64,000 bases of DNA from positions 1 to 64,000 of the forward strand of contig JASAND010008743.1 of assembly GCA_030248195.1 (NCBI GenBank), given 5' to 3'. Both the position numbers and the translations under genes were made by a program. The notes under the pieces are model-generated. The model did no database searches, had not been told where the DNA came from, and saw only the letters and a program-made list of their open reading frames with translations. Source of the stretch: Trissonchulus latispiculum. Lineage: Eukaryota; Nematoda; Enoplea; Enoplida; Ironidae. Shown piece by piece: positions 38,893-58,970 of the stretch (position 1 is its first letter; every line of letters begins with the position of its first letter).

Positions 38893-39282
38893 CTATGTAC
38901 AAGTGGTTTTTACCCCTTTTCCTTGGGGAGCCCTAAAGAGGACTGTTTGGATAGAGACGCTTAAAACGTCATAGTTCTGACCGAAGCATATCTCTGCCCA
39001 GTCGATGTTGAGAGAGTACCAACAAGGCTCAGTTCCGAGGACGGTTAGATTAACTTTTTGATCGAAAGATTCTCTGAGTTGGTCTATCTTTGTTTTGTCA
39101 AGACATAGAAATTTTGGTGAAATAAGTGCACCTACCAAGACAGTCAGTGTAACGGCGGCAAGGGAGATAGAACAGACTGCAATTAGTATTTTACCCCAAC
39201 CGAAGGATACGCCTCCTGAGAACTCTATGGGCGGCACGTAACTGCTCTTCATTTCGTCCATTAACAATGAAGCCTTTCCCAT
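38893..39282 (-). CDS. Single-pass membrane protein of the virus-like block
   Basis: 129 residues from ATG 39282. About 30 polar residues are followed by one strong transmembrane segment, ILIAVCSISLAAVTLTVLVG, then about 75 residues with three cysteines (PKFLCLDK, EPCWYS, EICFGQ). No cleavable signal peptide is apparent; it would be a type II or signal-anchored protein. No family was recognised. In related elements small membrane proteins are often virion components, but this is inference. The hairpin at 38929-38944 lies inside its last codons. Confidence 0.6.
   Translation of the reverse strand: MGKASLLMDEMKSSYVPPIEFSGGVSFGWGKILIAVCSISLAAVTLTVLVGALISPKFLCLDKTKIDQLRESFDQKVNLTVLGTEPCWYSLNIDWAEICFGQNYDVLSVSIQTVLFRAPQGKGVKTTCT
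38929..38944 (-). terminator. Histone-like 3' hairpin, upstream cluster
   Basis: On the minus strand AGTCCT-CTTT-AGGGCT forms a 6-bp stem with one T-G wobble and a 4-base loop, preceded by CCAAAC. Together with the flanking TATCC it matches the hairpin at 36328-36343 at all but three positions. The stem change keeps pairing as a wobble and another change is in the loop. It overlaps the last codons of the membrane-protein gene. Confidence 0.5.
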
Positions 39283-39365
39283 TGTGAAACATTCGTACTT
39301 TTAGACCGAGACTAGTGAATGTAATGCCGGAGAAAAGTTCGGTAAATCTTTAATTGCCCTTGAAC

Positions 39366-39755
39366 CTAAACATTGGTAGCTGCGTTGTCTAGCCATTTAT
39401 GCATAGTCGGTAAATCCACTCTCCGGTCAAAGGTGAATGAACCGACCATGTTTACGACCCTGTAGCTGGATACTCCAACTCCGAGTAAGTTCGCAACTTC
39501 CTGAATAGCATTTTCTGCTTCTTCTTGCTTTTTAGCCCCCAGACAATTGAAAGTTCCTGTTTTGAATATAACAAATGTAACGGGATCCCACCTTAGAGAA
39601 GCCCCACTGAATTTTTGAGGATTGTACTTGACGCCAGGAATTGTACTGAGGTTGATAGTTTGGTCAAATTTCCCACTGAGCACAATATTTTCAATTTTTA
39701 ACTCAGACATGGTTTGTAAAAAATCATTGTTAAACGTAGAAATTTCCTCTCTCAT
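39366..39755 (-). CDS. TATA-binding-protein-like factor
   Basis: First ATG at 39755; the frame is open further upstream to 39794. The product is about 129 residues. Its centre follows one TBP half-repeat: IENIVLSGKFDQTINLSTIP, then YNPQKFSGASLRWDPVTFVI, then FKTGTFNCLGAKKQEEAENA and VANLLGVG. After that VVNMVGSFTFDRRVDLPTM matches the start of the second half-repeat of TBP before the protein ends. A normal TBP core has two repeats, so this is a one-and-a-bit repeat or truncated form. By family it would bind TATA DNA. Its neighbours have TATA boxes at 40262-40267 and 38633-38640, which suggests an element-encoded transcription factor. Confidence 0.7.
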   Translation of the reverse strand: MREEISTFNNDFLQTMSELKIENIVLSGKFDQTINLSTIPGVKYNPQKFSGASLRWDPVTFVIFKTGTFNCLGAKKQEEAENAIQEVANLLGVGVSSYRVVNMVGSFTFDRRVDLPTMHKWLDNAATNV

Positions 39756-39781
39756 TGAAGGTTGAGTACTGATTGGGTAAT

Positions 39782-40198
39782 TTACCTCAGACACTCTACA
39801 AAGCTTTTTACAATTTCGTCGTTTTTCGAAGGTCGTTCTCGAAGAAAGGAGATTATGTCTTCAAAGGAAAACCCTAAGTCCCGGTGGTAGAGAAAGTAGA
39901 TGCAGTACTCCCCACAGACGAAAGTGGTATAATCCTGTAAACGAACCGGGTTATGCTTTTGCAATCTGTCGTACTTATCAAACTCTTTAAGTGGTGGTCG
40001 GCCGTAGCTATCGAAATACTCAGCGTAATCATCTAAATACATCGCAACCCAGTGTTGCCCAGGAAGTTGGCAGGGGTCGGTGTTGGCTACGAAACAGCTC
40101 GTTTCATGTTGAATATCAGGAAGGTGGTCAATGGGAAAGACTCCAACGAAATTTTGGACTAAGGGAGCTAGTGTGTTTTCAATTTCTAGTGTATTCAT
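39782..40198 (-). CDS. Adenain-like cysteine protease (Polinton PRO / C5 type)
   Basis: 138 residues from ATG 40198. The catalytic set of adenovirus-type proteases is present in order: His49 in GQHWVAMY, Asp63 in EYFDSYG, Gln88 and Cys95 in FVCGEYC. The opening FVGVFPIDHLP and CFVANTD also match Polinton and adintovirus proteases, and the length is typical for these short forms. By family it matures capsid precursors, so its presence argues for a virion-forming ancestor, although no capsid gene lies in this window. It is the first gene of the upstream cluster and is intact. Confidence 0.9.
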   Translation of the reverse strand: MNTLEIENTLAPLVQNFVGVFPIDHLPDIQHETSCFVANTDPCQLPGQHWVAMYLDDYAEYFDSYGRPPLKEFDKYDRLQKHNPVRLQDYTTFVCGEYCIYFLYHRDLGFSFEDIISFLRERPSKNDEIVKSFVECLR

Positions 40199-40261
40199 AT
40201 GGCGTAATCAAAGAAAGGTGTGCGGTTATAGTCGATTGAGACAAGGTTATCAAACTCCCCG

Positions 40262-40287: not shown

Positions 40288-40786
40288 AAGTTACATCATT
40301 TTCTCGTGACAGAGTGGTTTGCTCAAGGGCTCATGGGGTTCCCAAAATTCCCGATTAATCCTGATTAACCCCGAAGATAAGTTTTAACCTCTCAATTGCT
40401 AAAAACATCCCAATTAAATAGTTTGCTTGAATATTAACGAATTTGATTTAAGATTCCTTTCCCATTAGAGTCTTTTGTAATTTTCCTAACAAAGAACAGA
40501 AATACCCCAAACGTTCAAATAAATTGCATAACTCCAAATCAAGAAGACGTCCAGCAAACTCAACACATCACATTTCAACTCTACTTAGCCAGAATAGTCA
40601 GAAAATTCACAGGAGACCCAAAGCAGGGCTCGAAAGCAGGGCTCAAAACGGCAAAAAACCAAGATCCACAAAATTCACAAACTTCTCATCAATTCAAAAC
40701 ATTCAAAATCAAAATATTCAAGATCTGAATCCAAACAACCTCAACTTAGCTCATTCCTAGCCCGACATATCCTAGCTTCCCTTACA
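40288..40786 (-). repeat. 3' LTR of the giant retroelement
   Basis: 499 bp, matching 58472-58970 with only two differences noticed by eye, both near the TG end (CCTA here, CTTT there on the plus strand). On the coding strand it starts TGTAAGGGAAG and ends GATGTAACTT, without the usual CA. Confidence 0.85.
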
Positions 40787-40795: not shown

Positions 40796-41756
40796 GCAAA
40801 AAATGGGGTAATCTTTCACTAGGTTGGGAGGATTACAGACAGATATGGTGACGGTGCAAACGGCAAACAAACACACGCAGTAATAACTATTTACAAACAT
40901 TATGAAGCATTGGTCCATAACTGTGGCAGATTATTTTCCATAGTCCTGGCGATTGGTGGCCATAACAAAGTACTGGAGAGTAGAGTAGAGATGACCGGTC
41001 ATAGTCCATGTCAGTCAGAGCTCTAATGGTGAAAGGTTGAAATCAGGATGAAAGGTAGGATGGGAAGGTGATCGGTTATAGTCCGCATCGAACAGAGCTT
41101 CCAGGGCGCCAAAAGACGTATTGGCCGGGGCATCGACAGCAGGTGAGTGGGCAGAGAGAGCTTCAGCATAAATTCAGTCAGGTAGGTGAGTGATGCACCA
41201 TAGTCCTAGGCACAGAGACGGTGATGAGTGGAGCTGACCGCGAGTAGAGGGTGCGGTCGATCAGCAGGCTCCCTAAGCAGAGAGCCAGTCAGTGGGAGAA
41301 ACGGTGTTGACATCACAAATTTAGGGAATCGAACCAACCAATCATCAAGTGAATCGAACCACGGACCAACCAAAAAGAAAAAACCACTGTTAGCAAAACA
41401 GCCTATAATCGAACATAAACAAATAAGCAACACAAACAAACAAGCTGAAACACACGCGGTTAACTAGTTGCAATTTCTACAGCTCCTTTTCGCTATCAGT
41501 CACTACTATCCCAAGGCAAAAGTGAAATGGAGAATCAGCGTGTGCAAGTGCTAGGAGTGCATTGCTTGTACGTGCGGTGCAAGTGTAGGAAAAGTAAACC
41601 AGAATCCATTTTAGGCACTCATCGCTTCAACCTAACAGGTTAGTTTCCCTCTAACAGAGTTAGTCAAAATCAGTGAAGGCCAATGTGTATGTGCGTGAGG
41701 TGCAAACAGGTCAGTATTTAAGCATCAAAAATTAATCAAAAGAAAACAAGCGTTAG

Positions 41757-43403
41757 CTGTCAGGGGACGCCGACCCATATCTAGCAAAAGATTTTTATAA
41801 AAATCAAAAATCAAGAATTTGACAGATTTTATTGGATGAAGAAAATATTTAAAAACAAAAATCAAAAATTTATGCAACACTCAGAGAATAAATGGCTTGA
41901 AATATCAATTATCAAAGGTTTGTGCATTTGTACACGTCATTTCTTAAAAACAAAAATCAAAAATCAAAAGCTTCTATGATTGGCTGGCGACTTCGGCCAA
42001 TCATGCAGCAGCTATAGAGTCACGTGCTGTTCACTAATGAAACCTATATGATTGATATTGCAGGTTTGCTGTAGCTATATATTTCTTGAAAATTTCATTT
42101 CAAATGAGGTTGTAAATAATTTTCGAAAAATTTATCAAACTATGAGTTAACTTTATAAACATTAACAAGAACAACAAGTTATTTCTATTCTTAATTCTTA
42201 ACAAATATTAAAGTAAAATAAATATATTTTAAGAACAGTTTAAATTCAAGTATACATGTCTTCAAACTTTAGTTTCCGTTTCAATTTCAGTTTTTGTGAT
42301 TTTGTTGCACCGAATTTGTTCGGCCCACATTTTAGGTGTCACAAATAAAATTCTCCGTCCTTGGAAACTTCCCCTTCGGGTAAATTAAGACCTAGGGAAC
42401 TTTTTCCTGTGAACTTCTTCGTTGAGAAAATCCCCCGGATCAGTAGAAATTCCGGGTCTGCTTTAGACCCCGCCGTCTTGAACCTGCAGCTGGAGCAGGA
42501 ACAAGAACAGGAACAGGAAAGGGATCTAATTTGAGGTAGTCCTTTTGTGCAGTGCTTTTGTGGGGATTTGTTAAAAACGCAACAACTTTCGCAATTTTGA
42601 GAGATGGAAACAGCTGTATGTACTTATAATCAGGACATTAAGGTGATTTTACGAAACTAGCAAAATTAGCAAAACTTTTCTGACATAACGGTTAAACATA
42701 GACCAACAATCTTTGAACATAGATTTCTCAAAACTGTAGAATGGCCAAAAGTTCTTTTTGTGCCATGATATGAAGGGCATACAGGCCCAGGGACGGCTTT
42801 TTGGATTTTGCTTATCAGTTCTTAACGGTCGAGAAAATCTTTTTTCTATTTTGACCATCAAAATTGTTTTTGCTTATACTGACTTAGTCGAAGGCTGTAA
42901 AAGCAAGTGTTGATTGCGGTGCCCTCTTTCCAGCCATACCAACCAATCCGGTGTCTCGACTTTCTTCTGAAAGTAGAAATGAATTGTTGTTCTTGTTAAT
43001 GTTTAAGTTAACTCATAGTTTGGTAAATTTTTCGAAAATTATTTACAACCTCATTTGAAATGAAATTTTCAAGAAATATATATAGCTACAGCAAACCTGC
43101 AACATCAATAATATAGGTTTCATTAGTGGACAGCACGTGACTCTATAGCTGCTGCATGATTGGCCGAAGTCGCCAGCCAATCATAGAAGCTTTTGATTTT
43201 TGATTTTTGTTTTTAAGCAATGACGTGTACAAATGCACAAACCTTTGATATTTGATATTTCAAGCTGTTTATTTTCTGAGTGATGCATAAATTTTTGATT
43301 TTTGTTTTTAAATATTTTCTTCTTCCAATAAAATTTGTCTAATTCTTGATTTTCGATTTTTATAAAAAGTATTCGCTAGATATGGGTCGACGTCCCCTGA
43401 CAG
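41757..43403. mobile_element. Foldback-type DNA transposon with 420-bp inverted repeats
   Basis: Inverted arms 41757-42177 and 42984-43403 match closely along their whole length. The outer ends are CTGTCAGGGGACG and CGTCCCCTGACAG, flanked by TTAG at 41753-41756 and 43404-43407. The 806-base centre holds no convincing ORF. It is a non-autonomous element inserted in the 3' region of the retroelement. The superfamily is uncertain because a 4-bp TTAG duplication is not diagnostic. Confidence 0.85.
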
Positions 43404-43827
43404 TTAGCTAAAACTTGGTTTAAGTGCAAAAGGCAAATCCAAACAGGTGCAAAGGATGGAGGAAGCCGATCTTCAGCAGTATCAAGCTAAAAATATTACA
43501 CACATAGCACGGACCGGACGAGAACTGCTAATCCCAAGTTTATTCGTGTTTATCTTCATAATTAACTCAACATAAGTTCTTTTGGAATCAAGCTGCTAAA
43601 GATACCATCCTAAATTCTTTCTAGTGCGTGTTGTTCGATATCAACCAAATGTCTAGTAAATTCTGTCCAACAGGATGCAATTAATATCATAACAATAAGC
43701 TAACATGAACTGATTAGTCAAGGCACAATGAACACAGATCCTATACAAGAACATTTACAATGCGATCAGTCGATAAACTATAAATAAACTATGGGAACGA
43801 ATTCCAACTTAAGCTTGGTTCGATTGT

Positions 43828-43899
43828 GCCCGAGTGGCTCAATCGGTAGAGCGTTGGCCTAGACAGCCAAAGGTTTTGGGTTCGATCCCCACCTCGGGC
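43828..43899 (+). tRNA. tRNA-like sequence, anticodon AGA, degenerate (tRNA pseudogene or SINE head)
   Basis: 72 bases fold as a cloverleaf: acceptor GCCCGAG with CTCGGGC (7 bp), D-arm GCTC/GAGC, anticodon stem TTGGC/GCCAA with loop CTAGACA, and T-arm TTGGG/CCCAC around TTCGATC with one mismatch. The anticodon AGA would be serine, but the variable loop is only five bases, while true tRNA-Ser has a long arm. Position 37 is C rather than a purine. A short hairpin (CCCGAATTTTTCGGG) follows. It is probably a tRNA-derived repeat rather than a working tRNA. Confidence 0.5.
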
Positions 43900-44359
43900 C
43901 CGAATTTTTCGGGTCGGAGGTGCTGTAGTGACAATCTTAGTTTCGTTTGTTCTTTCATATGTATCAAAGCAATCAGTAACCATTTCAAAATCCCGATTTG
44001 TCGTTAGAAATCTTCTATTTAGCGAAAGTTTTCAGTTCATACATAATTCGATGATGATATCGTTTTTTCCACGTTTTAATTTCCTGAACCAGAGTACATT
44101 AGGATCTTTTCCCTCTAGCTATTCGAGAACAGTTCATATCCACCTTATCTAATTCAGTACAAATACTGTTTCATCACTTGTAGATCCGGATCAGTGCAGT
44201 ACGTATCTAAACATGCAAGCAGGCGTGCATTCCCGTAAGTTTTCTTAAGGCTTAGGGTAAGGGAGTAAATCAGTAAGGAGCAGGCGGATATCTGGCCATG
44301 GCTAGACTCATCAAGTTCTACCAGGATCAATCACCACAATCAGTTCTTACGGGAACACA

Positions 44360-45067
44360 TCAACAGACACAAAATGCAGTAACATGCAAACAACAATTAC
44401 AAGTCAGGGCATGCAAAGTCAGGCGACAATTCAGGATGGATACGGGGCAAAGCATCCAAAAACATGCGAATAGTCCTAGGGACATGGTAGGTGGTCCAAT
44501 AAAACGATTCCACCCCAAACGAGCTTTCAACACAAGCACACGTTCAGACAAACACAAACTATTAGGACAATGATACTCAACATTATAGTCAGAGGGCATG
44601 CGGGACTGCAGACGTGACTTAGGGAGGGAGGACGCATAGAGAAGGGAGAGGGGAGCAGCGCGAATCTGTGTAGGAATACCATGATAAGACAGAGAATATC
44701 GCCAGAAACAGTTAGTACAGAGAATCCTGCACATGTCAGTTACCTCCGGTTCGAGGATGAGAACCGTCTTTCCTAAAGCGAACAACGTGGTAGTGCCTGG
44801 AGCAACGTAGATCTTAGTGGTCCGGAAACAGCGACGCAATGAATCTGGCAACGGGAGGATATGGCGCTCGGGACCTCGCTGGTGAGGCATGAGCCAGGAT
44901 TCTGCAGGGGGGCCCGACTCGTACTGGATAGTGGGGATGCGCGGCTCAGGTGGCAATGTGGAACGAGGAACTCTACGGGAACCTGAAGGCGTAGACAAAC
45001 TAGACAGATCAGTGGAGGTGACAAAACTCTCAGAACCAGACAACCAAGCTTCGATAGACAGAGGCAT
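44360..45067 (-). CDS. Cysteine-motif accessory protein, paralog 1
   Basis: 235 residues from ATG 45067 (MPLSIEAWL), intact. A Ser/Pro-rich N-terminus is followed by GPERHILPLP, a hydrophobic stretch, and the family core: CTNCFWRYSLSYHGIP, about 38 residues, then CPNSLCLSERVLVL and GWNRF. The two cysteine pairs (CxxC and CxxxxC) could form one zinc site. It shares this core with the next two genes, so the three arose by tandem duplication. No known domain was recognised. It lies 3' of integrase and OTU genes, where retroviruses carry accessory genes. Confidence 0.65.
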   Translation of the reverse strand: MPLSIEAWLSGSESFVTSTDLSSLSTPSGSRRVPRSTLPPEPRIPTIQYESGPPAESWLMPHQRGPERHILPLPDSLRRCFRTTKIYVAPGTTTLFALGKTVLILEPEVTDMCRILCTNCFWRYSLSYHGIPTQIRAAPLSLLYASSLPKSRLQSRMPSDYNVEYHCPNSLCLSERVLVLKARLGWNRFIGPPTMSLGLFACFWMLCPVSILNCRLTLHALTCNCCLHVTAFCVC

Positions 45068-45159
45068 CTTGTTTTAAGACTATAAACAAAAATAGAATAC
45101 GATCAGAAAAGTGTGAAACTGAGATGTAGAGAACCTAATTAGCAGCGGGACGGGACAAC

Positions 45160-45789
45160 TTATTCTCCTAGAATGTTAGGGACAAACAAAGGACTTTCAC
45201 CTGGCATACGCATTCTAAAATCAAGGATATCTCTAGGTAACCAAGCGGACAGGCAATTACAAACGGAATACAAAGCGGATATCGCATTCGGCTCTAGACT
45301 CTGGACACCACGAGAGTGCATCCATCCTTCGAGCTCATGCAACACAAGTACAGACACATGTTGACAATAAACATTGGGACATCGAAAAATACCGGCACCA
45401 AAACTAGGTATATTATCTATCAATCTGTGTTTAATAGTATTATTGCATCTACGTACTTCATCTGAGACAGGATATACTGTGATAGGGACTCCATGAAAGT
45501 TTAAACCTGCACGCCAGAAACAATTAACACAGAGGTACGTACAAACTTGCTCAACCTGGAGGCTTACTATATGAATTCTGGAATTGACCACAAAATCCTT
45601 ACGGGCGGGATCAGTGTAAACGTCTGCCGTACCTGGGAACATCATGAGGCCAACGGGCAACTCGGCTGGGGTGCGGCGAGGACCTTCAAACTCCTGCGGG
45701 CAATCTAGACTATAGGTGATTTCTAACGCAGCATCTTCACTAACGAACTCGGGTTCAAATACGACTTCAGGCGGAAGCTTCGGAGCCAT
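45160..45789 (-). CDS. Cysteine-motif accessory protein, paralog 2
   Basis: 209 residues from ATG 45789 (MAPKLPPEVVFEPEF), intact. An acidic N-terminus is followed by GPRRTPAELPVG, then CVNCFWRAGLNFHGVPITVY, about 37 residues, CPNVYCQHVSVLVL and GWMHSRG. It is the most complete-looking member and agrees with both neighbours at the same landmarks. Spacing to paralog 1 is 92 bases. The function is unknown. Confidence 0.65.
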   Translation of the reverse strand: MAPKLPPEVVFEPEFVSEDAALEITYSLDCPQEFEGPRRTPAELPVGLMMFPGTADVYTDPARKDFVVNSRIHIVSLQVEQVCTYLCVNCFWRAGLNFHGVPITVYPVSDEVRRCNNTIKHRLIDNIPSFGAGIFRCPNVYCQHVSVLVLHELEGWMHSRGVQSLEPNAISALYSVCNCLSAWLPRDILDFRMRMPGESPLFVPNILGE

Positions 45790-45905
45790 CAGCTGTTATT
45801 CCTAAAGGTAAGACGGGGCAGTGTAGACGCTAAAGGGCTTAAGGACAAGTTATGCTCTGTTCACAAAAACACACCAACCAACAGTATTACAGCACGCAAC
45901 ATTCA

Positions 45906-46588
45906 TCACACATAATTATATTGATATCCCAACAGGTTAGGTAAATAAGGAACAGTATCATCCAACATGGGCATAAAAGGATCACAAATAGAAGCAGGCA
46001 AGTCAGGATGAACGAAGCCAATTCTATCAAGCAAACCAATTTGGTATTCATTATACTGCACGTGCGTAGCATGCGACCAATCTTTATGTTCGAGCAACAT
46101 GACAGTCTTATCAGATTTACAGTAAATATTAGGACAATAGAGAACGGGATCTTGGACAGCGGGAAATGCTCGAAGAAGACAACGCTTGAAAACGTTTGTC
46201 TTCTCGCGAAACTTGTCCTCCAGCGGATAAAATACAAAGGGAACACCATGAAATGACAAGCCAAATCGCCAGAAACAATTACAACACAAATAGGCGGCCA
46301 TCTGAGCAACATGCATACCTTCCTTCAACAGATGAACTCTACGATTTGGGGGAAACAATTATCCGTGGCGATGAAGTATCGGGATCCTTGACGGACTCTG
46401 ACCAGTCAAGACGGCAAATGGTCACGTTCCCTCAACGGACCAATCTCTTGGCTCATCAAGCTGTAGAACAGCGTTGCCGGGTCTGGAGGCGACGACACAG
46501 GATTTGGCAGGACAAGATTGGGCGGAGGAGTGGATGGTCGGTACTCTACAATATGTTCCTCTCGGGCGGGCAGATCAGCTAGTGGCAT
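45906..46588 (-). pseudogene. Cysteine-motif accessory protein, paralog 3, frameshifted
   Basis: The N-terminal part runs from ATG 46588 (MPLADLPAREEH) to a stop at 46406 and includes GPLRERDHLP, aligning with GPERHILPLP of paralog 1. The rest is in another frame (46358-45906) with CCNCFWRFGLSFHGVPFVFY, CPNIYCKSDKTVML and DWSH. A frameshift near 46400 splits the gene. Spacing to paralog 2 is 116 bases, similar to the other gap. Confidence 0.6.
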
Positions 46589-47656: not shown

Positions 47657-48400
47657 TTACTGCTCAGACGAATGTCGACCCGACAGAGGGCCAGAGGAAG
47701 ACTTCCCACGTTGGGACTTCCTAAAGGGATTTCTAAAGAAGAGACTAGCACCAGAAAGCAATGGGCTCTCGGAGAACAACTTCTCGACATTTGGTGCGGA
47801 GGATCTGCCACCTTTGTTGGCATTGTCGGCGGGGGACGACTGATTGGAGGAGGAAGAAGATAGTAGCTCCATAATCGTAATTTTGGAATTATTGCTGGTA
47901 GGCCATTTCCAATCAGCAGGTGTCTGTACTGAAAGCACCACCATGAAGTGATCACTGTTTTCGTTATATAGGTGCAGTGCATTTCGTTCATAACTTTGAC
48001 TAGAACCCAACAGAGCACCGGGCAAGAATTGTTGCCATGCCCATACTTTGCAAAACTTTGGGTAAGATTGAATCGGAGTACGTAACCAGGCAGCAGTTAA
48101 AAATAATTCGTCGTCAGTTGCATATTTAGCAGTTTTAGTTAACCTATTTCTAACAGCTTCGGGGTCAGTAAAAAGTGTCCGAAATCGGCCCTTATGTTCA
48201 TAAGTAGAGAAAAATTCTAATAACCCACGCTTTACAGTTTTCGAATGATCTTCGGATCCCGTAATGGCCAGAGAGATGGCTCGATAGAAACAGTTTCCGT
48301 CACCCACTACATTTATTACCTCATACGGTTCATAAAGAGGGATATGTCTCATCATTTCCGGAAGACGGTGTTCTACTGGAAGGCCACGTAATAAGGCCAT
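47657..48400 (-). CDS. OTU-family cysteine protease in a retroelement
   Basis: 247 residues from ATG 48400, intact. The catalytic block VVGDGNCFYRAISLAITGSE puts Cys37 with Asp34 next to it. The matching histidine is His151 in NSDHFMVVL. Between them LLEFFSTYE and DDELFLTAAWLRTPIQSY fit the OTU fold. The last 90 residues are Ser-rich and poorly structured. OTU enzymes remove ubiquitin or ubiquitin-like proteins, and viral versions blunt ubiquitin-dependent responses. It starts 20 bases after the integrase stop in a different frame and stays open while gag, env and pol are broken. Confidence 0.85.
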   Translation of the reverse strand: MALLRGLPVEHRLPEMMRHIPLYEPYEVINVVGDGNCFYRAISLAITGSEDHSKTVKRGLLEFFSTYEHKGRFRTLFTDPEAVRNRLTKTAKYATDDELFLTAAWLRTPIQSYPKFCKVWAWQQFLPGALLGSSQSYERNALHLYNENSDHFMVVLSVQTPADWKWPTSNNSKITIMELLSSSSSNQSSPADNANKGGRSSAPNVEKLFSESPLLSGASLFFRNPFRKSQRGKSSSGPLSGRHSSEQ

Positions 48401-48420
48401 ATGTCCTTGCCAGCGTGCAT

Positions 48421-50276
48421 CTACGGGATTAAAAAGTTCCTACGATTAAATGCTATGGGATCATTTTCGGGAGAAAGTGATTCTTCTCCTACAAACTGTG
48501 GAATACTATCAGTTTCGGAAGCAGAGTCTTGTGAGGAGACTATAACCTTTGGAGGTGCGACACTCTTCTGTTTACGGGAGAGAGGTACACGTTTGCTGGG
48601 TCGAACAGGAGGTTTCTCCGGGCTAGTATCAGAACGACCGACCCTAGATCTCCGGCTGGGTTGTTTGCGAATGAGTGGCTTGGGAGTCTCATTTTCGGAA
48701 GGTGAATCGGCTGGGGGTGGCGTCTTAGGTAGGTTAGCTTTTTGTAACTTTGCAATACTCTTAGCGGGTTGTTCGTCAGGGATAGGAGGTTCAGCTCTAT
48801 CAGAACCTTCGTCGTCGTGATCGTGTATTGGCGCGGTAATCACACGGGGTTCAACACAGGGGTACATGTTATTGAACTGTACCTTGACCCTCTTGGCACG
48901 GCGGTTACCTGCAGGGTAGACTTCCGCAACGCAACCGACAATTTTCTCAACGCGGTATGGGCCGATTTTCCTATCTAAAAGTTTATAGACTTGATCGCGC
49001 TTAGCTACATTCGAGGCCTTAATCATGACTAAATCACCAACTTGAAATTTTGGTTCTACAGCGTTTTTGTTATAATTTTTATCGTTAACTTCTCGCGCAG
49101 CGCCAATCTTTTCGCGTGCTAGGGACCAAGCGAGTTGAAGTGCCTCATAGCCTCCCTCACATAGTCGAAACCAGAATACTTCCTGTCGGTGGGTATTGAA
49201 ACGTTGGTGGCACTGGGAAGAACAGGATCCCAGGCATGTAACAGATAATGGGGCGTTTCTCCTGTAGTTGAGTTGATGGCGGTGTTGTATGCGAAATGAC
49301 AGTAAGGCACCATATTATCCCATTCTATGTGATTCTCAGTAACTGTGGCAAGCATGTCCAACAGTGTTCTATGCCAGTGTTCAACCTGTCCGTTTGCGGC
49401 AGGATGATATCTAGTGGTTTCAAGCTTTCGTGTTTGAACTTGCGAGCAAATTTCCTTATTCAACTGTGCGACAAATTCCTTGCCCTGGTCTGAAATCAGT
49501 AATTTTGGCGAGCCATACTGTAAAATGACAAATTCGAGAAAACTTTGCGCGATAGAATAAGCGGTTTTGTTTTTAATGGGTATGGCAATCACATATTTCG
49601 AAAAGGCATCAATGAAACTCAAGATGTGTTTCATTCCACTTTTAGAAGTTTTGCTGACGTCCATTAAATCACAGTGAACACGTTCGAAAGGTTCGACGGC
49701 CATGGGGGCATGTCGAAGCATAGCTTTTGGGTTTTTTGGAGGGCCTTAACGTTTTTGGCAGCGGGGACAAGACTCAACCCATCGCTTAACGTCAGCATAC
49801 ATTCCAGGCCACCAGAAATGTTGAGATAACCTGAATCTAGTTTTATTTCTACCGCCATGCGCGGCGTAAGGGCTATCATGGCATGCGGCTAAGGCTTCGT
49901 CACGCAAACTTTCAGGAACAGCTAAAACTTCCAGGGTAGTGTCCCTCACTTTCTCGAGATGAACTAAGACGTCGTTGCGCATGTCGCATTGCTCGGCCAA
50001 AGACGTAATTTTAACAGCCAAATTGAAATTACTAGGTAGGTTCCCTAATGTTTTATAGTCAATACTCCCTTTCAAAAGTAAATCCTCGCGCTGTAAAGTT
50101 TGCAACTTAGCCCAAGATTTGGGATTCAAAGAAACGTTAGAATTATCCCGAACGGCATGGTGAAAAACATCACTGGAAATAGCCGTGGTTGGGTCAATTC
50201 GCTTTGAACGACCAGTTTCAGGAGAGTCATCTACAGGCTTTTCATAGACTTTGCTCGGATAGTCTAAATCTAGCAT
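48421..50276 (-). pseudogene. pol: Retroelement integrase, broken
   Basis: Zinc-binding HHCC region with HDSPYAAHGG and CPRCQKR at the end of the first segment (50276-49746). The catalytic core (49721-49119) shows the D-D-E triad in VHCDLMD, LLISDQGKEF and GQVEHWHRTL. A C-terminal segment (49026-48421) contains KIGPYRVEKIVG, the GPY/F module of Ty3/gypsy integrases, then a long Ser/Pro-rich tail. A stop near 49746 in otherwise matching frame and a frameshift near 49120 interrupt it. By family it inserts the DNA copy into the genome; this copy cannot make an intact protein. Confidence 0.88.
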
Positions 50277-51761
50277 ACGTGGTCGCGAAACTGGTTTTCT
50301 CTATCTTCACTTGATTCAGAGCTAGAAATTTTTTGCAGTCCCCTCAGTTTTGGTTGTTTTTCAGGGGATGGCTGACTTTGCTCCTCTTTGGAATCACTGG
50401 AGCTGGAGGCTTGTGAAATTTTCGAAACCTTGGATCGAACAGCAGGAAGTCCCTTTTTTGCTCTCAATTTGTTAACAACCGCAACGTTAGGGTCTCGAGC
50501 CCGTCGGGCCTGTAGACGAACGATAACCGAATTTATATGAGCAACTAGATCCTCACTATCATCTTGATAAATTTGCACAAATTTTCGGTCATTTTCTTGC
50601 TCGTCACCTAGTAATCCTTTTGCAATATCAGCGAACAAAGGATTCCTAGAGAGTCCATCTGCGTTCCTAAGCTGCGGATTATTTCGGTGCTTGATTTCAA
50701 AGCCATATTCTGAAAACGTCATTTGCCAACGAGCTAATCGAGAGTTCCGGGGCGGGTGCTTCATTAGCCAACGTAGGGCAGAATGATCAGTGAACAAGGT
50801 AAAAGGGGGGTCACCGTAAAGATAATGACGAAAATGTTCCGAATTTCATAGCTAGACACTCTTTGTCATGGGCGGAATAATTTCGCTCGTACTTCTTCAA
50901 GGAGCGGGCAGCATAAGCAACAGGATGATATTTACCGTCATCCTGTTCCTGAGATAGAACAGCACCCAATCCTAAATCGGAAGAATCAGTATGAAGAATT
51001 AAACCTTTAGCGAGATCAGGGTGAGCTAGTACGGGTGCTTCAACCAAACTCTTTTTCAGGAGCTCAAATGACTGCTGATGCGTATTGTTCCAAACGAAAC
51101 GGACACCCTTCTTTTTAAGAGAGTAGAGCGGAGCAGCTAGATGCGCAAAACCTTTAATAAACTTTGCATAATAAGCGCACATTCCTAAAAAACTTTCCAC
51201 ATCCTTAATATTTTTAGGTACGGCTAGATCATGTATTGCTTGGATTCGTTCCTTTAGAGGTTCGACCCCTTGTTCTGAAATGATGTGTCCCAAATAGGCG
51301 ACAGATTTTTTCAAGAAATGACATTTTCCAGGATTCATTTTTAAGTCAGCAGCGCGCAGTCGGTCAAAAACTTCTTGCATAATTTCCAAATGTTCCTCAA
51401 ACGTTTTTGAAAAGATCAAGATATCGTCTATGTAAATAATTTACTTTTCCCACTGTAGATCGCCTAGAATTCTTTCCATGCAGCGCTGAAAATTGCCGGG
51501 TGCACATTTTAGACCAAAAGGTAACACGTTATACTCAAACTGACCATGAAAGGTATTGAAACTGGCTTTTGCTTTGGATTCCTCATCAAGTTCGATCTGA
51601 TTGAATCCTTTACTCAAATCGATAGTGGAAAAGAACTTTGACCCCTTCAGTGACGTCATTATGTCGTCAATGCGCGGAATCGGATACACGTCGGGGTCGG
51701 TAATTTTATTAACTCTCCTAAAATCAACGCACAAGCCTAATTTCCCTCCGGGTTTGGGCAC
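50270..51761 (-). pseudogene. pol: Reverse transcriptase and RNase H, broken
   Basis: RT motifs in order: VPKPGGKLGLCVDFRRVNK, FFSTIDLSKGFNQI, LPFGLKCAPGNFQRCM and the active site YIDDI at about 51419-51433. The connection has MNPGKCHFLKKSVAYLGHII and FLGMCAYYAKFIKGFAHLAA. RNase H follows with LHTDSSDLGLGAVLSQ, YERNYSAHDKECLA and, in another frame, TDHSALRWL. An in-frame TAA at 51441-51443 lies just before the active site, a frameshift lies near 50810, and another near 50275. The layout is that of Ty3/gypsy (Metaviridae). Confidence 0.9.
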
Positions 51762-51779
51762 GTAAATTATGGGTAAACT

Positions 51780-53147
51780 TCAAGGACTGGTGGAGGGTCT
51801 GATTAGACTGTATTTCAGCATCTCGGTGAGCTCCTCAAGCAGCGGTTGTCTCAAGTGTACAGGGAGCCTATAAGGCGTGGCGTACAGTGGTTTAGCTTCT
51901 CCGGTATTAATGTGAGCCTTAAAAATAGTACATTTGCCAATGTCGAAAGGATGTTGAGAAAAACAGTTTCTATTTGCGTTCAGGAGCCCAAGAAATTGCC
52001 CAATTTCGGTTTTCGGCAAATTTTCCTGATCAAACGAAATGTCGCACATCGGTTCCGGTAAGTCGTTTAGAGTGCACGGGTGGCCGGTAAAACAAGTATT
52101 AGCGCTATAACCATGTTTTGGACTAATATTTCTGCCAGATTTCGGGGAATTTCTCAAACAAACAGGTTCACCATTTTCATTGACTAACGGTTGGAAGTTA
52201 CGAATGCTACCGCCTCGCCGAAGTTCATTCTGCGTACCTATCTGGGTCATACCTATCTGAAAAACTTCGCTCTTCCTAGATTTTACCGGCATCATAAGTG
52301 GCAGGGTTACACGCGTACCATCTGAAGCTGGCCAGGTAATGGTGTGCTGGCCAAAATCTAAAGAAATTTCTCCCGGAAAAGTTACCATAAAGTCGGATCC
52401 CAAGATACAATCGGTAGTCAATTTCTCTACCACTAGAAATTTCCAGTTAAGTACGGGTAGGCGCCTTTCGGCCCCGGCAAAGATTATAGGAATATTCACA
52501 TTTCCTAGAATTTGACACCTTCCCCCATTTGCGGTACGTAGAGATCCCAAAGCCTCAACGGGCATGGTGACCAAATCTAGTCTAGTAACCAAATTCTGTG
52601 ATACTATTGACAACAGAGATCCTGTGTCAAAAAGAGCGTTGACTGGCTGAGTCCTAGCCATCAAAACTGAGTGTGCGTTTACCATTCTCCCTGAACCTCG
52701 AGTGGATAGTCGTGTCTGTGGTCCCGACCCATCAGACTCAGGACTGACGGGTCTTAGGTTCCGTTTAAAAGGACTAGTTGCAGCATCAGCATGTGCCTGA
52801 GAGGATGTTGTAGCATCCTCTTCCTCCGATCCCTCAATAGCTACTTGGCGCGAAAACCGTACAATCCTGTTACCTTTTCCTTTTAGGTCACACCCTAGGT
52901 CTATAAGCGGCGAGGGTTGGCTTTCCTGACTATCATCGGTCAGAGGCCGTGAACTAATATCTAGGGGATCCAGTCCGTAATCGGACATGGACGAAGCGTA
53001 CGAGGTGTCTCTTGATATCGGCTTATAGTGGGTGGTTGCGTGGCATCGGTTAGCCATGGACCTACGATTGCGCTCGGCGAATGTAGTTTCAAGACTTTCT
53101 CGAGGTCGATAAGGCATCGGGTCACTCTTGACTGAAAGGTTGCCCAA
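51780..53147 (-). pseudogene. pro: Retroelement aspartic protease region (pro), stopped before RT
   Basis: 455 codons: an acidic, Ser-rich N-terminal part, then the protease core with ALFDTGSLLSIVSQNLV and ILGSDFM, then a linker to RT ending LTEMLKYSLIRPSTSP. The frame meets TGA at 51780-51782 where family members usually have a Trp codon, and RT continues in the same frame. The N-terminal residues (GNLSVKSDP) repeat the end of the env-like tail because of a 116-bp tandem duplication. The start at 53147 is not a natural one. Confidence 0.8.
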
Positions 53148-53350
53148 TTTTATCGGTACCCCTTCTTCATCATCACTAAACAGATTTTTCTGCAGTTTCT
53201 GATTCTCAATAGGTGCCGAAATAGCAGGCCTATTGGGTCACTCTTGACTGAAAGGTTGCCCAATTTTATCGGTACCTCTTCTTCATCATCACTAAACAGA
53301 TTTTCCTGCAGTTTCTGATTCTCAATAGGTGCCGAAATAGCAGGCCTATT
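53119..53350. repeat. 116-bp tandem duplication at the env-pro junction
   Basis: Copies at 53119-53234 and 53235-53350 are nearly identical and both begin GGGTCACTCTTGACTG. The next bases are again GGGTC, so the duplication used a short microhomology. Because 116 is not a multiple of three it shifts the frame. The reading phases of the flanking env-like and protease frames agree once one unit is discounted. Confidence 0.9.
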
Positions 53351-55207
53351 GGGTCGAGGGGAAGGAGAAGGGGTATTCCACCAGATAATGAAACAGCCTA
53401 GTAACACTATGACAATGACTACCATTAAGCCGTGTTTGAGCTCTAAGGGAATTAGAGGTAAGTCAACGTAATTTTTAACTTGATTCTGAATTAAATTTTT
53501 AGCTTGCTCGTTTTCATATTCTGCCGTCGAAAGCTCAGTAAAATGTAATGGGATCCGTCCCAATGGGGCGGGAACAATCGCTTCTCTCAAATCAGAAGTG
53601 GTTATCGTAGTTTTAGCAATTCCTAGCGTGCTAGTTAAGATGGTGTTTCCAATAATCAGATGTAAGTATCGACCGTGCTCAAACCAGAGAGTTCCAGTTT
53701 CTGGAACGGGTACTCTTTCACCTTCGGCTACGTGATTCAGCGAGGGCGAGCGTGCAACAATTACTTCCGTATAGTTTGTCCTAACCAATACACCTGCAGA
53801 CGTAGTACGATAGATAGTAGAATTATCTAATACTTTGACCTGTATGTATTCGCGGCAATGTTCACATTCCTTACCCACACGCTCGGGAGGAAAACTAATA
53901 AGAATCTGTAGGCACTTCGCTCTTAAACTCATCACAATTGCATTAGGGGGACAAAACCATAGTCCCGGTGCTGTTTTACACGCAGAGACATCTATCTCCC
54001 TAACCTCACCAGTATCTAATCCGGCAGGGGTGCCAAAGAAGTAATTCCGTTTTTTCGTGAATTATAACCTACGTTCTGAATCGCATACAGGGACCTTACC
54101 TCCTGTTCCAATGGCACGGGAATTTCTAACATAAATCCAAAACGTAAAGTATTGAAATCAATCTTAATTGGGTAAACCTTCCCAAACTGATAAATTAAGC
54201 TCGGCTCCTGACTAAGTAGTGAATTTCTCAAAGAAGGGTGGGTACGAATTATCCCTTTTAGAGTCTGCAAATTTACCAAGTTTGGATTAATCTCAGAATG
54301 TAGACCAGCCCGCATAACAGAGTTTAAACCATCTTGTAAAGATGAAGTACAGATATGAGCAAGAAGTTGCATGTAAATCCGGCGCATGCAGGAAAAGTTT
54401 GAACAACGAGCCCTAATAATCAAAGTTGTCAAATCCTGAACGGTGTGATGCAAAAAGGCGTACACCTGCTCATTAGCATGGACAATCCGTTTGATAGAAT
54501 CGGTAATTTTAAGTTGGTCCTCCCTCAAAACGTTAAACCCATGTTCAAAAGCCATTACTCTATTATCTAGTTCGCCCAAATGATAAGAATTAGCTAAACT
54601 ATTAGCGAGTCCTTCTAATCCTAGTGCTCCAGCTAACAAAAATTCGATAAAACGCTTAGGCCGGCTGTGTTTGCTCCGGTACCGGATAAGAAGTGCAGAC
54701 TCCCGGTGTTGAACGGCACAAACTCGAAAGCAACTTTGAGTAAAAATGAGTGTTCAAAACTCCCGAATATAATTTTCGATATTCAAGCTTGATAGAATCA
54801 ATTTCCCGTTCCAGAAAGTCAAATTGTGGACAACTTTGGTTTATCATACGAACACAGTACTGGTCGGTCTTAGCTTTTCCAGTCGATAAATTTATGCAAT
54901 CTTCCTCATTGGCCCATTAAGGGGGATTCCACTGAGGAGACATAGGTGGCACTGCCAACTGCACGATCAACGCAAGATATTCCGTTTTCTGCAAAATTAC
55001 CCCAATCCCGGCACGATTTAATACTGCTCCCCATCGGGGCAAGACTAGGGTACCGATTTTCGCAATTTCGTCTGCTATCAATCGAGATGAGTCTGAGTCA
55101 GCCTGTGTCTGCGCGTTAGCCTTTGACACAAGGAATGCCAACAAAACCCAAGCAGCGGGTACAGCTGCCTTTCGGCAAGTCCTTACAGCGGCCGCCAGAG
55201 TCCACAT
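53150..55207 (-). pseudogene. env: Envelope-like fusion glycoprotein between gag and pro, broken
   Basis: It begins at ATG 55207 with a signal peptide ending in SKANAQ. After an in-frame TAA at 54917-54919 it continues with a cysteine-containing ectodomain. At about 54651 a basic RPKR cleavage motif precedes a hydrophobic glycine/alanine-rich stretch, as in class I fusion proteins and insect errantivirus/baculovirus F-type envelopes. The ectodomain (54639-54016, then 53935 on) ends in one transmembrane segment, GLMVVIVIVLLGCFIIWW, and a short acidic tail. There are frameshifts near 54660 and at an A-run near 54053. The gag frame overlaps its first 25 bases. Gene order is abnormal, since env normally follows pol. 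Family assignment rests on layout, not alignment. Confidence 0.7.
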
Positions 55208-57004
55208 AAAAACAAAAATAGGTAGGAAAAAGTGTCCGGCTCGTGGGACAACTTATCCTCTCCTCGGCCCAAATCAGTGTCTATTTCTTTTGAAATCTCA
55301 AGTCTGCACTGAATTGCCACCGTGTTGTCAACAATAGGCTCAAATATCGCCCTATCCCGCCTCAAGCTAGGCATACGACTAGAATGTCGGGGCACAGTCA
55401 CAAACAGTTCTTCCCCTGTGGAGGTAAAAGAGCTCACGCTGGGCGGTCGGTAAGCAGGTTCCTTTATCTGGCCGTAGCTGTCAGGCGCACGACAGGTGCA
55501 AACCAAAGGCCGGCGACACACTAAAGCTTTATGCTGAAAATGTGGCGAAGCTAAACAGCGCTTCGCATGCATCATACCATCTTTAGAGACCCTGCGGGTC
55601 GTGCGGACAGTATATTGACCAGAAGAATCAGATCGCGGGTCATCTCTGCGTCGGGGAGAACGGTAATGTTCATGCGACGAATACCCATTTTGATAATCAC
55701 TACCAGTCAAGTCAGATGCCACAGAATATTGGCGGCGTCGACTGTTTCCCTCACGAAACTGTCCCTCATTTGAAGTTCTAGAGACAGCGAATTTAGGCCA
55801 ATATTCTCTCTTCATTTCAGGAGGGAAGTCCCTACCCCGTGCCCCACGATCATAATTCGGTTTTCTATCGTATCGGTCATTCCTCTCATAGCGATCGCTT
55901 CTTTGAGCATAATCGTCACGCCGATTATTCTGATAGTTTCGGTTATCCCTCTCATAGCGGTTTCCTCGACTACTTTGGTCGTAATTCCCTTCTCTCCGAT
56001 TCTGAAAACTTGAATTGTTTCGGAAATTTTGATTTCCATCCGATCTGCGCTGAAAGTTCCAATCCGACCCTTGATTGTTGGGTCGGCATGCTCCTCCGCC
56101 AGGTTGACGGCATTCTCGACGAACGTGCCCCTGTTTATTGCAGTTAAAACAAGTCGTTCCCGGGGGTAAATCACGTCCCTTTCCGTTCCCATTCGAATTT
56201 CCTCTCTGCTTAGAATCTAACTCGTACTGTTCAAATTTGGCCTTCAGTTCCTTAACCGCCTTTTCAGCCTCGGCGATGGCAGCAGGCGTGTCCCTATCAT
56301 TTCGAAAATTTGGCTCGATAACGGATGGGTAGGCTTCCCCAGGGTACTCTCCCTCAGCCTGAAGAGCTTTCTCAACAGCACGCTCCATGGTTTTACAACC
56401 GGGAGGTACACGTGCCTTCAGATCACTGCGCAGTCCAAAAAGAAACAGTCTCAGCTTCAGCAATTCAAGCTGGTCCTCAGTAAACCCGCCCTTCTCTGTG
56501 AAACTTAGCCGTGCGTATCTATTAAGTCTCATTAGATAATCCATAACCGGTTCCCCTTTTTCTTGTTTCACTTGAAACATAAGCGATGACGCATGAAGTG
56601 CAGTGTGGGGGGAGGTGGGGAATCATAACCTTTTTCGTGGCCTCTACCATCTCGGCCCACGTGCCACGACTGGGTTTTGGCACTGAGCGGAATAATTCCA
56701 AAGCTCGTCCCTCTAAGGAACTGGAGAAGGTAAGGACTTTTTGTCCTTCCTCAAAATCCGTGACCTGGCAGAATCGGTCATACTTTTCCAAATGCTCTTC
56801 GAATGACTCAGAGGGTAGCCCATGATAGATTGGCACCGAACTATAGGCGGTTGCTACACCCTGAGCCCTAATAGCGAATGTAAATTCTGTCAGCGTATCA
56901 TTTAACTTAGCTAGGACTTATGATTCTGCATTTGGCGGATTGGCATTGGCCCCTCTGGGTCCTGATTGCGCGGACAACCCTACCTCAGCTAAATCGTTCG
57001 GCAT
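55183..57004 (-). pseudogene. gag: Retroelement Gag, broken
   Basis: ATG at 57004; a TAA about 28 codons later interrupts the frame, which resumes in phase with VPIYHGLPSESFEEHLEKYD. A frameshift lies between 56580 and 56522. Capsid-like segments are FEEGQKVLTFSSSLEGRALE and MDYLMRLNRYARLSFTEKGG. A CCHC zinc knuckle, CFNCNKQGHVRREC, lies near 56150, followed by an Arg/Asn/Tyr-rich RNA-binding-like tail. By family it forms the particle and packages RNA. Its last codons overlap the env-like signal peptide in another frame. Confidence 0.85.
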
Positions 57005-58471
57005 TCTGTTATACTATTATGAATGACTATCTATTAATCTAACGTAAGGTATTTGGTCTAAAATTCCGCCCAAAAATTCAAAGGTTACTCAAAATAGTAT
57101 TATCAGTGTCAGGCAAACCTAGATGCGAGTAAGAAACCGTAGACATACGTAAAAATTAATGAGATTTCAAGGCCTACGTACTTTATAATTAATTAAAGTT
57201 AATTAACAGATTTCGCATACAGTTACGCAACACGTACAATGATCGTAAACCAGGGTTATTTTGGTCGTGAGAATTCTTTTCGAGGAAAAGGGCTATATTT
57301 TCAAACAGGTAAGACAGATTCAATTATTTTTGAACTGCAGAGCTCAATTTGAAATAATCACCCAGTTTTTTCCTCGCCTAAGGGAGCTCCACATGTAATA
57401 AAATGATTGTTCTGTCAAGTAAGTTTTGGCTTAGATTACATAAACCATCAAGGACGAGATAGGCCTCCCAACTTCAGATCCCAATCACTCTATTACAACC
57501 TAGCACTATAATACCAACTTCGGGGTGCACGAAATCTTAGGTATCGTTCAATCGGAATACTCGGAGAGTTCTGGTGAAATGACTCTCTTTTTCTCTATCC
57601 CATCAAGCAATTCAGCCACGATCTCGGAGCACTGGTTAAACGGCTCTCTTAGCTTATTATGTTGAGCGCTGGTGAAATGGTTCAGAATACAGCAGATCAA
57701 CTCTACACAATAACTTTTACTGTAATCACTACAGTCAAATAATCAGATGAATTAAGGTTAATGCGTTTGTCCAAAGGTACAAAACTTTACGGTTTCACGT
57801 CAACAGATTGAAAAGACCAGTACTAACTTTTCGCTCAATATCAACAACTAAATTTGCACATTGATGACAGAACAAAACAACAACTCCACATTCACAGATA
57901 CAGAATAATTCCCAACGAACGTTAACAGAGAAAAGAACTAATGTTGCATACTATACAAGTTGTGTATAAGATAGGACCTTACAAAAAACACAAGCTTTCT
58001 ACTCATTAAATTCTCCTCCAACTTGCTATTGGCGATTCGATTAACTCACACTTTACCGTATTGGCAATCACCTGACAAACTTCTCCTTTGAAGTTACCTT
58101 GGCAGAGCAAAATCCAAACCGTGCATCGACGGAAGAGGCAAGCACAGCTAATTAAGTTGCAGGACACGGGTTGAGTCGAGGGCTACGGTTCACAGGTCAG
58201 ACTAAAGCAGTTCACGGCACTGCGGGCCAATAACTTAACGCAGAAGGCTCTAGGGGCCTGTAAAACAAGTCAGATCTCTGGTCTACTCTCGACCGACCGA
58301 ACAACAAGACAGCCAAACCCAAGACTGTTTGAAAATCGGGGAAGACCTGTCAGTCAAACCCCTAACTCCGCCTCTCGACTTTCCCAGGTGTATGACGTGC
58401 AAATTTGGATACTGTAGTCGGAAAATCTTTGTGTTTGTGTTTGATGTCAGGCGATTGCTTTGAGTGAACGA
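57005..58471 (-). other. Leader between 5' LTR and gag
   Basis: 1.47 kb without a gene. The base next to the LTR reads TCGTTCACTCAAAGC on the coding strand, so no tRNA primer site starting TGG is obvious. Packaging signals would be expected here. Confidence 0.5.
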
Positions 58472-58970
58472 AAGTTACATCATTTTCTCGTGACAGAGTG
58501 GTTTGCTCAAGGGCTCATGGGGTTCCCAAAATTCCCGATTAATCCTGATTAACCCCGAAGATAAGTTTTAACCTCTCAATTGCTAAAAACATCCCAATTA
58601 AATAGTTTGCTTGAATATTAACGAATTTGATTTAAGATTCCTTTCCCATTAGAGTCTTTTGTAATTTTCCTAACAAAGAACAGAAATACCCCAAACGTTC
58701 AAATAAATTGCATAACTCCAAATCAAGAAGACGTCCAGCAAACTCAACACATCACATTTCAACTCTACTTAGCCAGAATAGTCAGAAAATTCACAGGAGA
58801 CCCAAAGCAGGGCTCGAAAGCAGGGCTCAAAACGGCAAAAAACCAAGATCCACAAAATTCACAAACTTCTCATCAATTCAAAACATTCAAAATCAAAATA
58901 TTCAAGATCTGAATCCAAACAACCTCAACTTAGCTCATTCCTAGCCCGACATATCTTTGCTTCCCTTACA
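58472..58970 (-). repeat. 5' LTR of the giant retroelement
   Basis: 499 bp, near-identical to 40288-40786. A 78-codon plus-strand frame inside it is shared with the other LTR and is not considered a gene. Confidence 0.85.

What the first reader, a model, noticed from the sequence alone, without database searches (positions are those of the whole stretch)
53150..57004. Envelope-like gene placed between gag and protease in a Ty3/gypsy element
In this element the signal-peptide, RPKR-motif and transmembrane-bearing env-like gene lies after gag and before pro-RT-RH-IN. Retroviruses and known gypsy-type errantiviruses have env after pol. The Gag frame overlaps the env start, and the env tail runs into the protease region.
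Basis: partly seen in the sequence, partly recalled or inferred. Interest (0 to 1): 0.87.

Follow-up and report, generated by a model that had tools for sequence, protein, structure and literature searches.

The report
Retrovirus-like element with env before pol
A decayed but apparently recently inserted 18.7-kb retrovirus-like element, probably in an animal genome, carries its envelope-like gene between its capsid gene and its enzyme genes, an order that differs from the usual one but has at least one published parallel, in planarian worms.

Summary
[quoted passage not shown] The env-like gene starts inside the gag end and has the layout of a class I fusogen: signal-like start, RPKR, hydrophobic segment, heptad repeats, membrane span. 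Pfam, PDB and Foldseek gave no supporting match and both models were poor, so fusogen is inference. The env tail meets the protease frame in a 116-bp tandem duplication whose copies encode nearly the same peptide, one in each frame; from this I infer an Env-Pro-Pol continuum. Gag, env and pol are broken here. Whether the order is fixed in other copies is untested: 12 of 12 genome searches did not complete. The order is not unprecedented: planarian Burro elements have env in frame between gag and pol (PMC6431247). New variant of a known kind.

The parts
58472..58970 (-). 5' LTR, 499 bp, begins TGTAAGGG
   Evidence: 497 of 499 bases identical to the 3' LTR
57005..58471 (-). leader; no TGG-type tRNA primer site by eye at the LTR edge and no self-complementary primer site of 8-15 nt in the LTR
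55183..57004 (-). gag: capsid part weakly like Retrotrans_gag (below cut-off), one CCHC knuckle, long tail; broken by one in-frame stop and one frame change
53237..55207 (-). env-like gene, in pieces (one in-frame stop, two frame changes); its low end is drawn at the edge of the protease ORF, though its own frame stays open to 53150
55112..55207 (-). signal-peptide-like N-terminus of the env-like protein, about 32 residues (extent by eye)
   Evidence: hydropathy peak 1.51
54652..54663 (-). RPKR, furin-type site
54598..54651 (-). hydrophobic Gly/Ala-rich segment, fusion-peptide-like (by eye)
   Evidence: sequence
54484..54588 (-). heptad repeat A, 90% LIVMF at a/d positions over 35 residues
   Evidence: 1 of 300 shuffles reached the score
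53471..53575 (-). heptad-like stretch B just before the membrane span (weak)
   Evidence: 21 of 300 shuffles reached the score
53384..53440 (-). membrane span of the env-like protein
   Evidence: mean hydropathy 2.59
53116..53347 (-). 116-bp tandem duplication (3 of 116 bases differ) where the env frame meets the protease frame; the copies encode nearly the same 38-residue peptide in the two frames
51780..53237 (-). protease (DTG motif) and the start of RT
   Evidence: PF13975 and PF13650 above cut-off
50270..51779 (-). RT (YIDD by eye) and RNase H; two in-frame stops (one at each end of 51441-51779) and one frame change
   Evidence: ORF 51441-51779 itself was not scanned with Pfam; nearest PDB chains 4ol8 and 7q5b
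48421..50300 (-). integrase: H2C2, rve, GPY motif (by eye) with weak SH3_Tf2-1; a frame change at each end of the H2C2/rve block and one in-frame stop
47657..48439 (-). OTU-type cysteine protease ORF (DGNCFYR and SDHF by eye), overlapping the integrase ORF end by 19 nt
   Evidence: PF02338 28.7 bits, cut-off 23.3; no PDB match to E 0.01
44360..46358 (-). three paralogous accessory ORFs (46358-45906, 45795-45160, 45073-44360) with a shared C-x-N-C-F-W-R ... H-G-x-P core; no Pfam match above cut-off
   Evidence: no PDB match for the middle one
41754..43406 (.). inverted repeat, arms about 430 bp and 94% alike, probably a nested element
40288..40786 (-). 3' LTR, preceded by the purine run GCGGGAAGGAG

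Best explanation
A decayed, apparently recently inserted endogenous copy of a giant Ty3/gypsy-type retroelement whose gene order is gag - env - pro-RT-RH-IN - OTU - accessory ORFs. Shown: the order in this copy, the LTRs, the gag/env overlap, the meeting of the env and protease frames, the enzyme domains. Inferred: the middle gene makes a class I (F-type) membrane fusogen, cut by a furin-type enzyme at RPKR. Inferred, less sure: Env and Pol are by design one Env-Pro-Pol precursor, started at env's own ATG and probably translated from a spliced RNA. The Env ectodomain then lies outside, the membrane span anchors the chain, and protease-RT-integrase hang inside as a giant cytoplasmic tail until the element's protease frees them, so that Env rather than a Gag-Pol fusion carries the enzymes into the budding particle. 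OTU and the accessory proteins might act on ubiquitin-based or other host responses (a guess from the family name).
For: An LTR pair with 497 of 499 bases identical brackets the whole array in one orientation. Gag and env overlap by 25 nt. The env frame reads through copy 1 and the protease frame through copy 2 of the 116-bp duplication, giving nearly the same peptide. Two env pieces longer than any stop-free run in 1000 Markov sequences. Heptad repeat A: 1 of 300 shuffles as good. Domain matches to protease, RT, RNase H, integrase and OTU. Against a Gag-Env shift product: of the X-XXY-YYZ sites between 55300 and 55183 there is one, TTTGGGC at 55273, and the env frame has a stop at 55255-55253 just behind it. 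A parallel exists: Burro has env in frame between gag and pol (PMC6431247).
Against: One copy only; other copies untested (12 of 12 genome-search runs unanswered). No Pfam family above cut-off in the env pieces and no telling PDB or Foldseek match; both models poor (mean pLDDT 37.3 and 40.6). The heptad test was just as strong for the C-terminal end of gag (1 of 300), so it is not specific. A second, weaker hydrophobic peak (1.48) lies in the N-terminal env piece. The env ATG has a weak start context (T at -3 and +4). The best acceptor-like site (55415, 11.1 bits, background 95% 10.9) is followed by a gag-frame ATG before the env ATG, and no donor in the leader reaches the background median (8.4 against 8.8; weights recalled). 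In this copy env and protease are in different frames, and the copies of the duplication differ more than the LTRs (3 of 116 against 2 of 499, p 0.049), so the split may predate this insertion. No target-site duplication of 4-8 bp found.
Confidence: 0.55

Rival explanations
1. Same element and order, but Env and Pol are made apart: env from its own spliced RNA as in retroviruses, Pol by another spliced RNA, reinitiation or recoding; the duplication and frame change at the env/protease border are a normal feature of the family.
For: The two frames differ in this copy; the duplication may be older than the insertion (3 of 116 against 2 of 499 differences, p 0.049); an acceptor-like site of 11.1 bits lies at 55415.
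Against: No strong acceptor was found for a separate pol RNA in 53700-52700 (best 7.0 bits, against a median background maximum of 7.8 computed for the 1-kb gag/env region). Both duplication copies encode nearly the same peptide, once in each frame.
Confidence: 0.28
2. The middle gene is not an envelope fusogen but another membrane protein of the element.
For: No Pfam family above cut-off, no telling PDB or Foldseek match; structure models not usable; the heptad test is not specific (gag end 1 of 300).
Against: Signal-like start, RPKR followed by a hydrophobic Gly/Ala-rich segment, a heptad repeat right behind it (1 of 300 shuffles), a second heptad-like stretch (21 of 300) before a strong span: the class I features in the class I order.
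Confidence: 0.12
3. The order is an artefact: an assembly join, or a rearranged single copy.
For: No target-site duplication was found, which can mean recombination between elements; the copy holds a tandem duplication and an inverted repeat that is probably nested.
Against: Gag and env overlap, env runs into the protease region, and the LTRs at the two ends are nearly identical; behind integrase stand an OTU ORF and three accessory ORFs, and by eye no ORF of env layout (accessory ORF 3 does have two hydrophobic stretches near its end).
Confidence: 0.05

Closest known systems
Burro / GYPSM1 giant gypsy-like elements of planarians (PMC6431247; section 7 and passages read)
   Same: Env-homologous region between gag and protease, giant size, extra domains, accessory ORFs
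   Different: Burro has gag, env and pol in one huge ORF1 (4,873 aa in S. mediterranea, 5,140 aa in D. tigrina), with BIR, BCL2 and ankyrin motifs and a dUTPase-like motif between protease and RT; here gag is in another frame, env has its own ATG and signal-like start, and no such domains were found in the pieces scanned
Errantiviruses (gypsy) and other env-bearing Metaviridae (PMC7879559, whole text)
   Same: LTRs, gag, protease-RT-RNase H-integrase, an env with surface and membrane parts
   Different: their env is described as downstream of integrase; here it lies before protease
TelKA elements of bdelloid rotifers (PMC5408684, passages)
   Same: retrovirus-like LTR element with F-type env: RXXR site, hydrophobic region, coiled coil, C-terminal span
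   Different: env is ORF3, downstream of pol; similarity to paramyxovirus F was shown there, not here
Ginger1 DNA transposons (PMC2836005, passages)
   Same: gypsy-type integrase with GPY/F followed by an OTU protease domain
   Different: a cut-and-paste DNA transposon; OTU is at the C-terminus of the transposase, here it is an overlapping ORF in another frame

Membership tests
Ty3/gypsy (Metaviridae) | LTR pair around gag and protease-RT-RNase H-integrase in that order | tested here: met
Ty3/gypsy (Metaviridae) | RT nearest to Ty3 among solved structures | tested here: met
   4ol8 E 6.6e-29 (that it is Ty3 is recalled) and 7q5b, named Ty3-G, E 2.7e-28; next best E 8.1e-20. A nearest match, not a tree
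Ty3/gypsy (Metaviridae) | GPY/F module in integrase | tested here: met
   GPY by eye in the ORF; SH3_Tf2-1 21.9 bits, below its cut-off of 30
Ty3/gypsy (Metaviridae) | tRNA primer site after the 5' LTR; polypurine tract before the 3' LTR | tested here: inconclusive
   purine run GCGGGAAGGAG present; no TGG-type primer site by eye, no self-primer of 8-15 nt; not compared with a tRNA set
Ty3/gypsy (Metaviridae) | 4-6 bp target-site duplication | tested here: not met
   none of 4-8 bp with borders moved by -4 to +3; one copy only, may be lost
Errantivirus / env-bearing Metaviridae as described by ICTV | env downstream of integrase | tested here: not met
   env-like gene lies before protease; OTU and accessory ORFs follow integrase
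Burro-like elements | env between gag and protease | tested here: met
   (env by layout, not by homology)
Burro-like elements | gag, env and pol in one ORF | tested here: not met
   gag and env in different frames, gag stop inside the env signal region
Burro-like elements | dUTPase-like motif between protease and RT; BIR, BCL2, ankyrin motifs | tested here: not met
   no such Pfam match in the 15 pieces of the element scanned (9 pieces, E up to 1; 6 pieces, E up to 0.5); ORF 51441-51779 was not scanned
Class I (F-type) fusogen | signal peptide, basic cleavage site, hydrophobic segment, heptad repeats A and B, C-terminal span in that order | tested here: met
   B is weak (21 of 300 shuffles), and signal and hydrophobic segment are by hydropathy and by eye
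Class I (F-type) fusogen | class I fold or profile homology to a known fusogen | tested here: inconclusive

The most novel reading that the evidence does not exclude
A lineage of retrovirus-like elements in which Env and Pol are one polyprotein, separate from Gag: a membrane fusogen whose cytoplasmic tail is protease-RT-RNase H-integrase. Enzymes would be packaged through Env and the membrane instead of a Gag-Pol fusion.
Probability: 0.3. Interest if true: 0.85.

Novelty: new variant of a known kind. Interest (0 to 1): 0.6.

Why it matters
Env after pol is given as the rule for env-bearing Metaviridae (ICTV profile). A further case of env between gag and pol, with env tied to pol but not to gag, would show that the order can change in more than one way, and would raise the question of how such an element keeps a membrane protein and cytosolic enzymes in one chain and gets its enzymes into the particle. 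The OTU gene and the three-member accessory family add to the evidence that giant retroelements collect genes much as viruses do.

Tried and rejected
Homologue search of an env piece: the protein database was switched off. Viral contigs: 7 scans (pro-RT ORF, env piece 54019-54753, RT/RNase H, OTU, RT ORF 51444-51779, env piece 53351-54061, accessory ORF 2); 5 of 7 had pattern matches but no relative confirmed, 2 of 7 had none. Own genome: the same request was sent 12 times and never answered. PDB by sequence: env piece 54019-54753, 0 matches to E 10; env piece 53153-54061, 2 glutamate-receptor matches at E 0.26 and 0.46, taken as chance; OTU 0 matches to E 0.01; accessory ORF 2, 0 to E 1. Structure: two single-sequence models, mean pLDDT 37.3 and 40.6. 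I ran Foldseek on the second although it is too weak; of 364 matches none reached E 0.001, and the viral glycoproteins among the 50 rows shown (best E 0.2) are no evidence. Rfam: only the tRNA.

Considered and rejected: a -1 ribosomal shift from gag into env at a canonical site; Troyka (termini CG...CG, no env, no GPY/F: PMC12440569, abstract, first of five parts of the text, and section 12); splice-site scores as proof (weights recalled, scores near background). Decay against age: 2 of 499 LTR differences predict about 19 substitutions in 9.3 kb since insertion. I count five in-frame stops and seven frame changes, the duplication included, in the ORF lists. That looks like many for the age, though I did not compute an expected number of breaks; damage older than the insertion, copying in trans, LTR conversion or assembly error may be part of it and I could not separate them.

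Literature: searches (searches; reading) timed out. Searches that worked: 50, 52, 53, 59, 61, 62, 64, 65. One search ('gag-env-pol' with 'retrotransposon', whole words) found 0 papers. Of the papers listed I opened seven: PMC7879559, PMC6431247, PMC5408684, PMC2836005, PMC12440569 as said above, and passages of PMC8556966 and PMC10309623, which held no case of env between gag and pol in the passages shown. The library holds no bioRxiv and few subscription papers, so a closer description may exist.
Full report
What is there. The element lies on the minus strand. A self-comparison of the window found two direct repeats of 499 bp at 40288-40786 and 58472-58970 that differ at 2 of 499 bases. They begin TGTAAGGG; the downstream one is preceded by the purine run GCGGGAAGGAG. 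They are taken as LTRs, making the element 18.7 kb. No target-site duplication of 4-8 bp was found with borders shifted by -4 to +3, and no self-primer site of 8-15 nt; by eye there is no TGG-type tRNA primer site. So the ends are not wholly typical.

Gene order. From the 5' LTR: a leader of about 1.47 kb; gag 57004-55183 (CCHC knuckle above the Pfam cut-off, capsid part only 16.3 bits against a cut-off of 24.1); the env-like gene from 55207; protease (PF13975, 29.8 bits); RT and RNase H (PF17919 108 bits, PF00078 49.6 bits); integrase H2C2 (82.9 bits; all) and rve (48.9 bits) with a GPY motif by eye; an OTU ORF (28.7 bits, cut-off 23.3); three paralogous ORFs. Among solved structures the RT/RNase H piece is nearest to 4ol8 (E 6.6e-29, recalled as Ty3) and 7q5b (named Ty3-G, E 2.7e-28). 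The integrase piece is nearest to foamy virus integrase (3oym, E 4e-10), with Ty3 also found (7q5b, E 2.8e-8). This is a Ty3/gypsy-type element by domain order and nearest match; no tree was built.

The env-like gene. It has a start ATG at 55207 in a weak context, a hydrophobic N-terminal segment (1.51), RPKR at 54663-54652, a hydrophobic Gly/Ala-rich segment by eye, a 35-residue heptad stretch with 90% LIVMF at a/d positions (1 of 300 shuffles as good), a weaker one before the span (21 of 300), and a strong membrane span at 53440-53384. Cautions: the same heptad test gave 1 of 300 for the end of gag, 62 of 300 for accessory ORF 2 and 218 of 300 for OTU, so it does not by itself mark a fusogen; and a second hydrophobic peak of 1.48 lies in the N-terminal env piece. 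The order of features is that of class I fusogens (established knowledge; the rotifer paper lists a like set). No Pfam family reached its cut-off in any env piece (3 pieces, 6 partly overlapping pieces); PDB and Foldseek gave nothing of weight; both models were poor. The fusogen reading is inference from layout.

Borders. Gag and env overlap by 25 nt, and env is in the -1 frame relative to gag. Between 55300 and 55183 there is one X-XXY-YYZ heptamer, in the gag frame at 55273; the env frame has a stop at 55255-55253 just behind it, so a canonical -1 shift from gag into env is unlikely. At the other end the env frame (piece 54061-53150) and the protease frame (53237-51780) meet in a 116-bp tandem duplication. 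Copy 1 in the env frame and copy 2 in the protease frame give nearly the same peptide. The peptide thus belongs to a stretch that ties the env cytoplasmic tail to the protease region. I infer an Env-Pro-Pol continuum as the design. But in this copy the frames differ, and the copies of the duplication differ more (3 of 116) than the LTRs (2 of 499; Fisher p 0.049), so the split may be older than this insertion. The evidence does not decide.

State of the copy. Gag, env and pol all carry stops and frame changes: five in-frame stops and seven frame changes by my count, the duplication included. With 2 LTR differences in 499 bp, about 19 substitutions are expected in 9.3 kb since insertion. The number of breaks looks high for that, but no expected number was computed; copying in trans, older damage, LTR conversion or assembly error are all possible.

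Artefact or rearrangement? The array is in one orientation between near-identical LTRs, gag and env interlock, env runs into the protease region, and by eye no ORF of env layout follows integrase. This argues against a join. The missing target-site duplication is the main point in favour of recombination. Other copies would settle it, but 12 of 12 requests to the genome search did not complete, the protein database was off, and 7 viral-contig scans confirmed no relative.

Known or new. The ICTV profile of Metaviridae says that env, where present, is encoded downstream of integrase (PMC7879559, whole text). It is filed as a new variant of a known kind, not as a Burro member. OTU behind a GPY/F integrase is known from Ginger1 DNA transposons (PMC2836005, passages). 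Two searches for OTU with gypsy retrotransposons gave 1 and 2 papers; of these only PMC2836005 was opened.

How it most likely works. Full-length RNA gives Gag. Env is started at its own ATG; a spliced RNA is likely by analogy with retroviruses, but splice-like signals are near background (one acceptor of 11.1 bits at 55415 against a 95% background of 10.9; best donor 8.4 against a median background of 8.8; weights recalled). If Env and Pol are one chain, the span puts protease-RT-integrase on the cytosolic side, where the protease could release them. If not, Env and Pol are made apart. I give 0.55 to the whole account and 0.3 to the fused Env-Pol design as a lineage trait.

Host. The species is not known. 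The window holds a seven-helix receptor ORF (best Pfam model Srsx, 103.7 bits) and a kringle domain (70.6 bits), so an animal is likely; this is inference.

Noticed in passing
36613-40207: Just beyond the 3' LTR, on the same strand: an adenovirus-protease-like ORF (12.5 bits, below Pfam cut-off), a TATA-binding-protein domain (68.9 bits), a YqaJ-like ORF (below cut-off) and a NADAR domain (113.1 bits). It looks like part of a DNA virus or large DNA transposon.
   Followed up: partly
44360-46358: Three paralogous ORFs, the other two 36% and 22% identical to the first, with 24 invariant columns including C-x-N-C-F-W-R and H-G-x-P; no Pfam match above cut-off in the three, no PDB match for the one searched.
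   Followed up: partly
15820-18474: An 885-codon ORF on the minus strand with a CCHC-like motif by eye and no Pfam match to E 0.01: possibly the gag of another retroelement.
   Followed up: partly
3-1610: A 536-codon open frame that resembles a protein-primed DNA polymerase B by eye; Pfam gave only one match, below cut-off.
   Followed up: partly
13371-13832: Tandem repeat array in which both strands hold frames open for more than 150 codons.
   Followed up: no
41754-43406 and 43828-43901: Inverted repeat with about 430-bp arms, 94% alike, and a tRNA-Ser gene or tRNA-like sequence, both inside the 3' part of the element.
   Followed up: no
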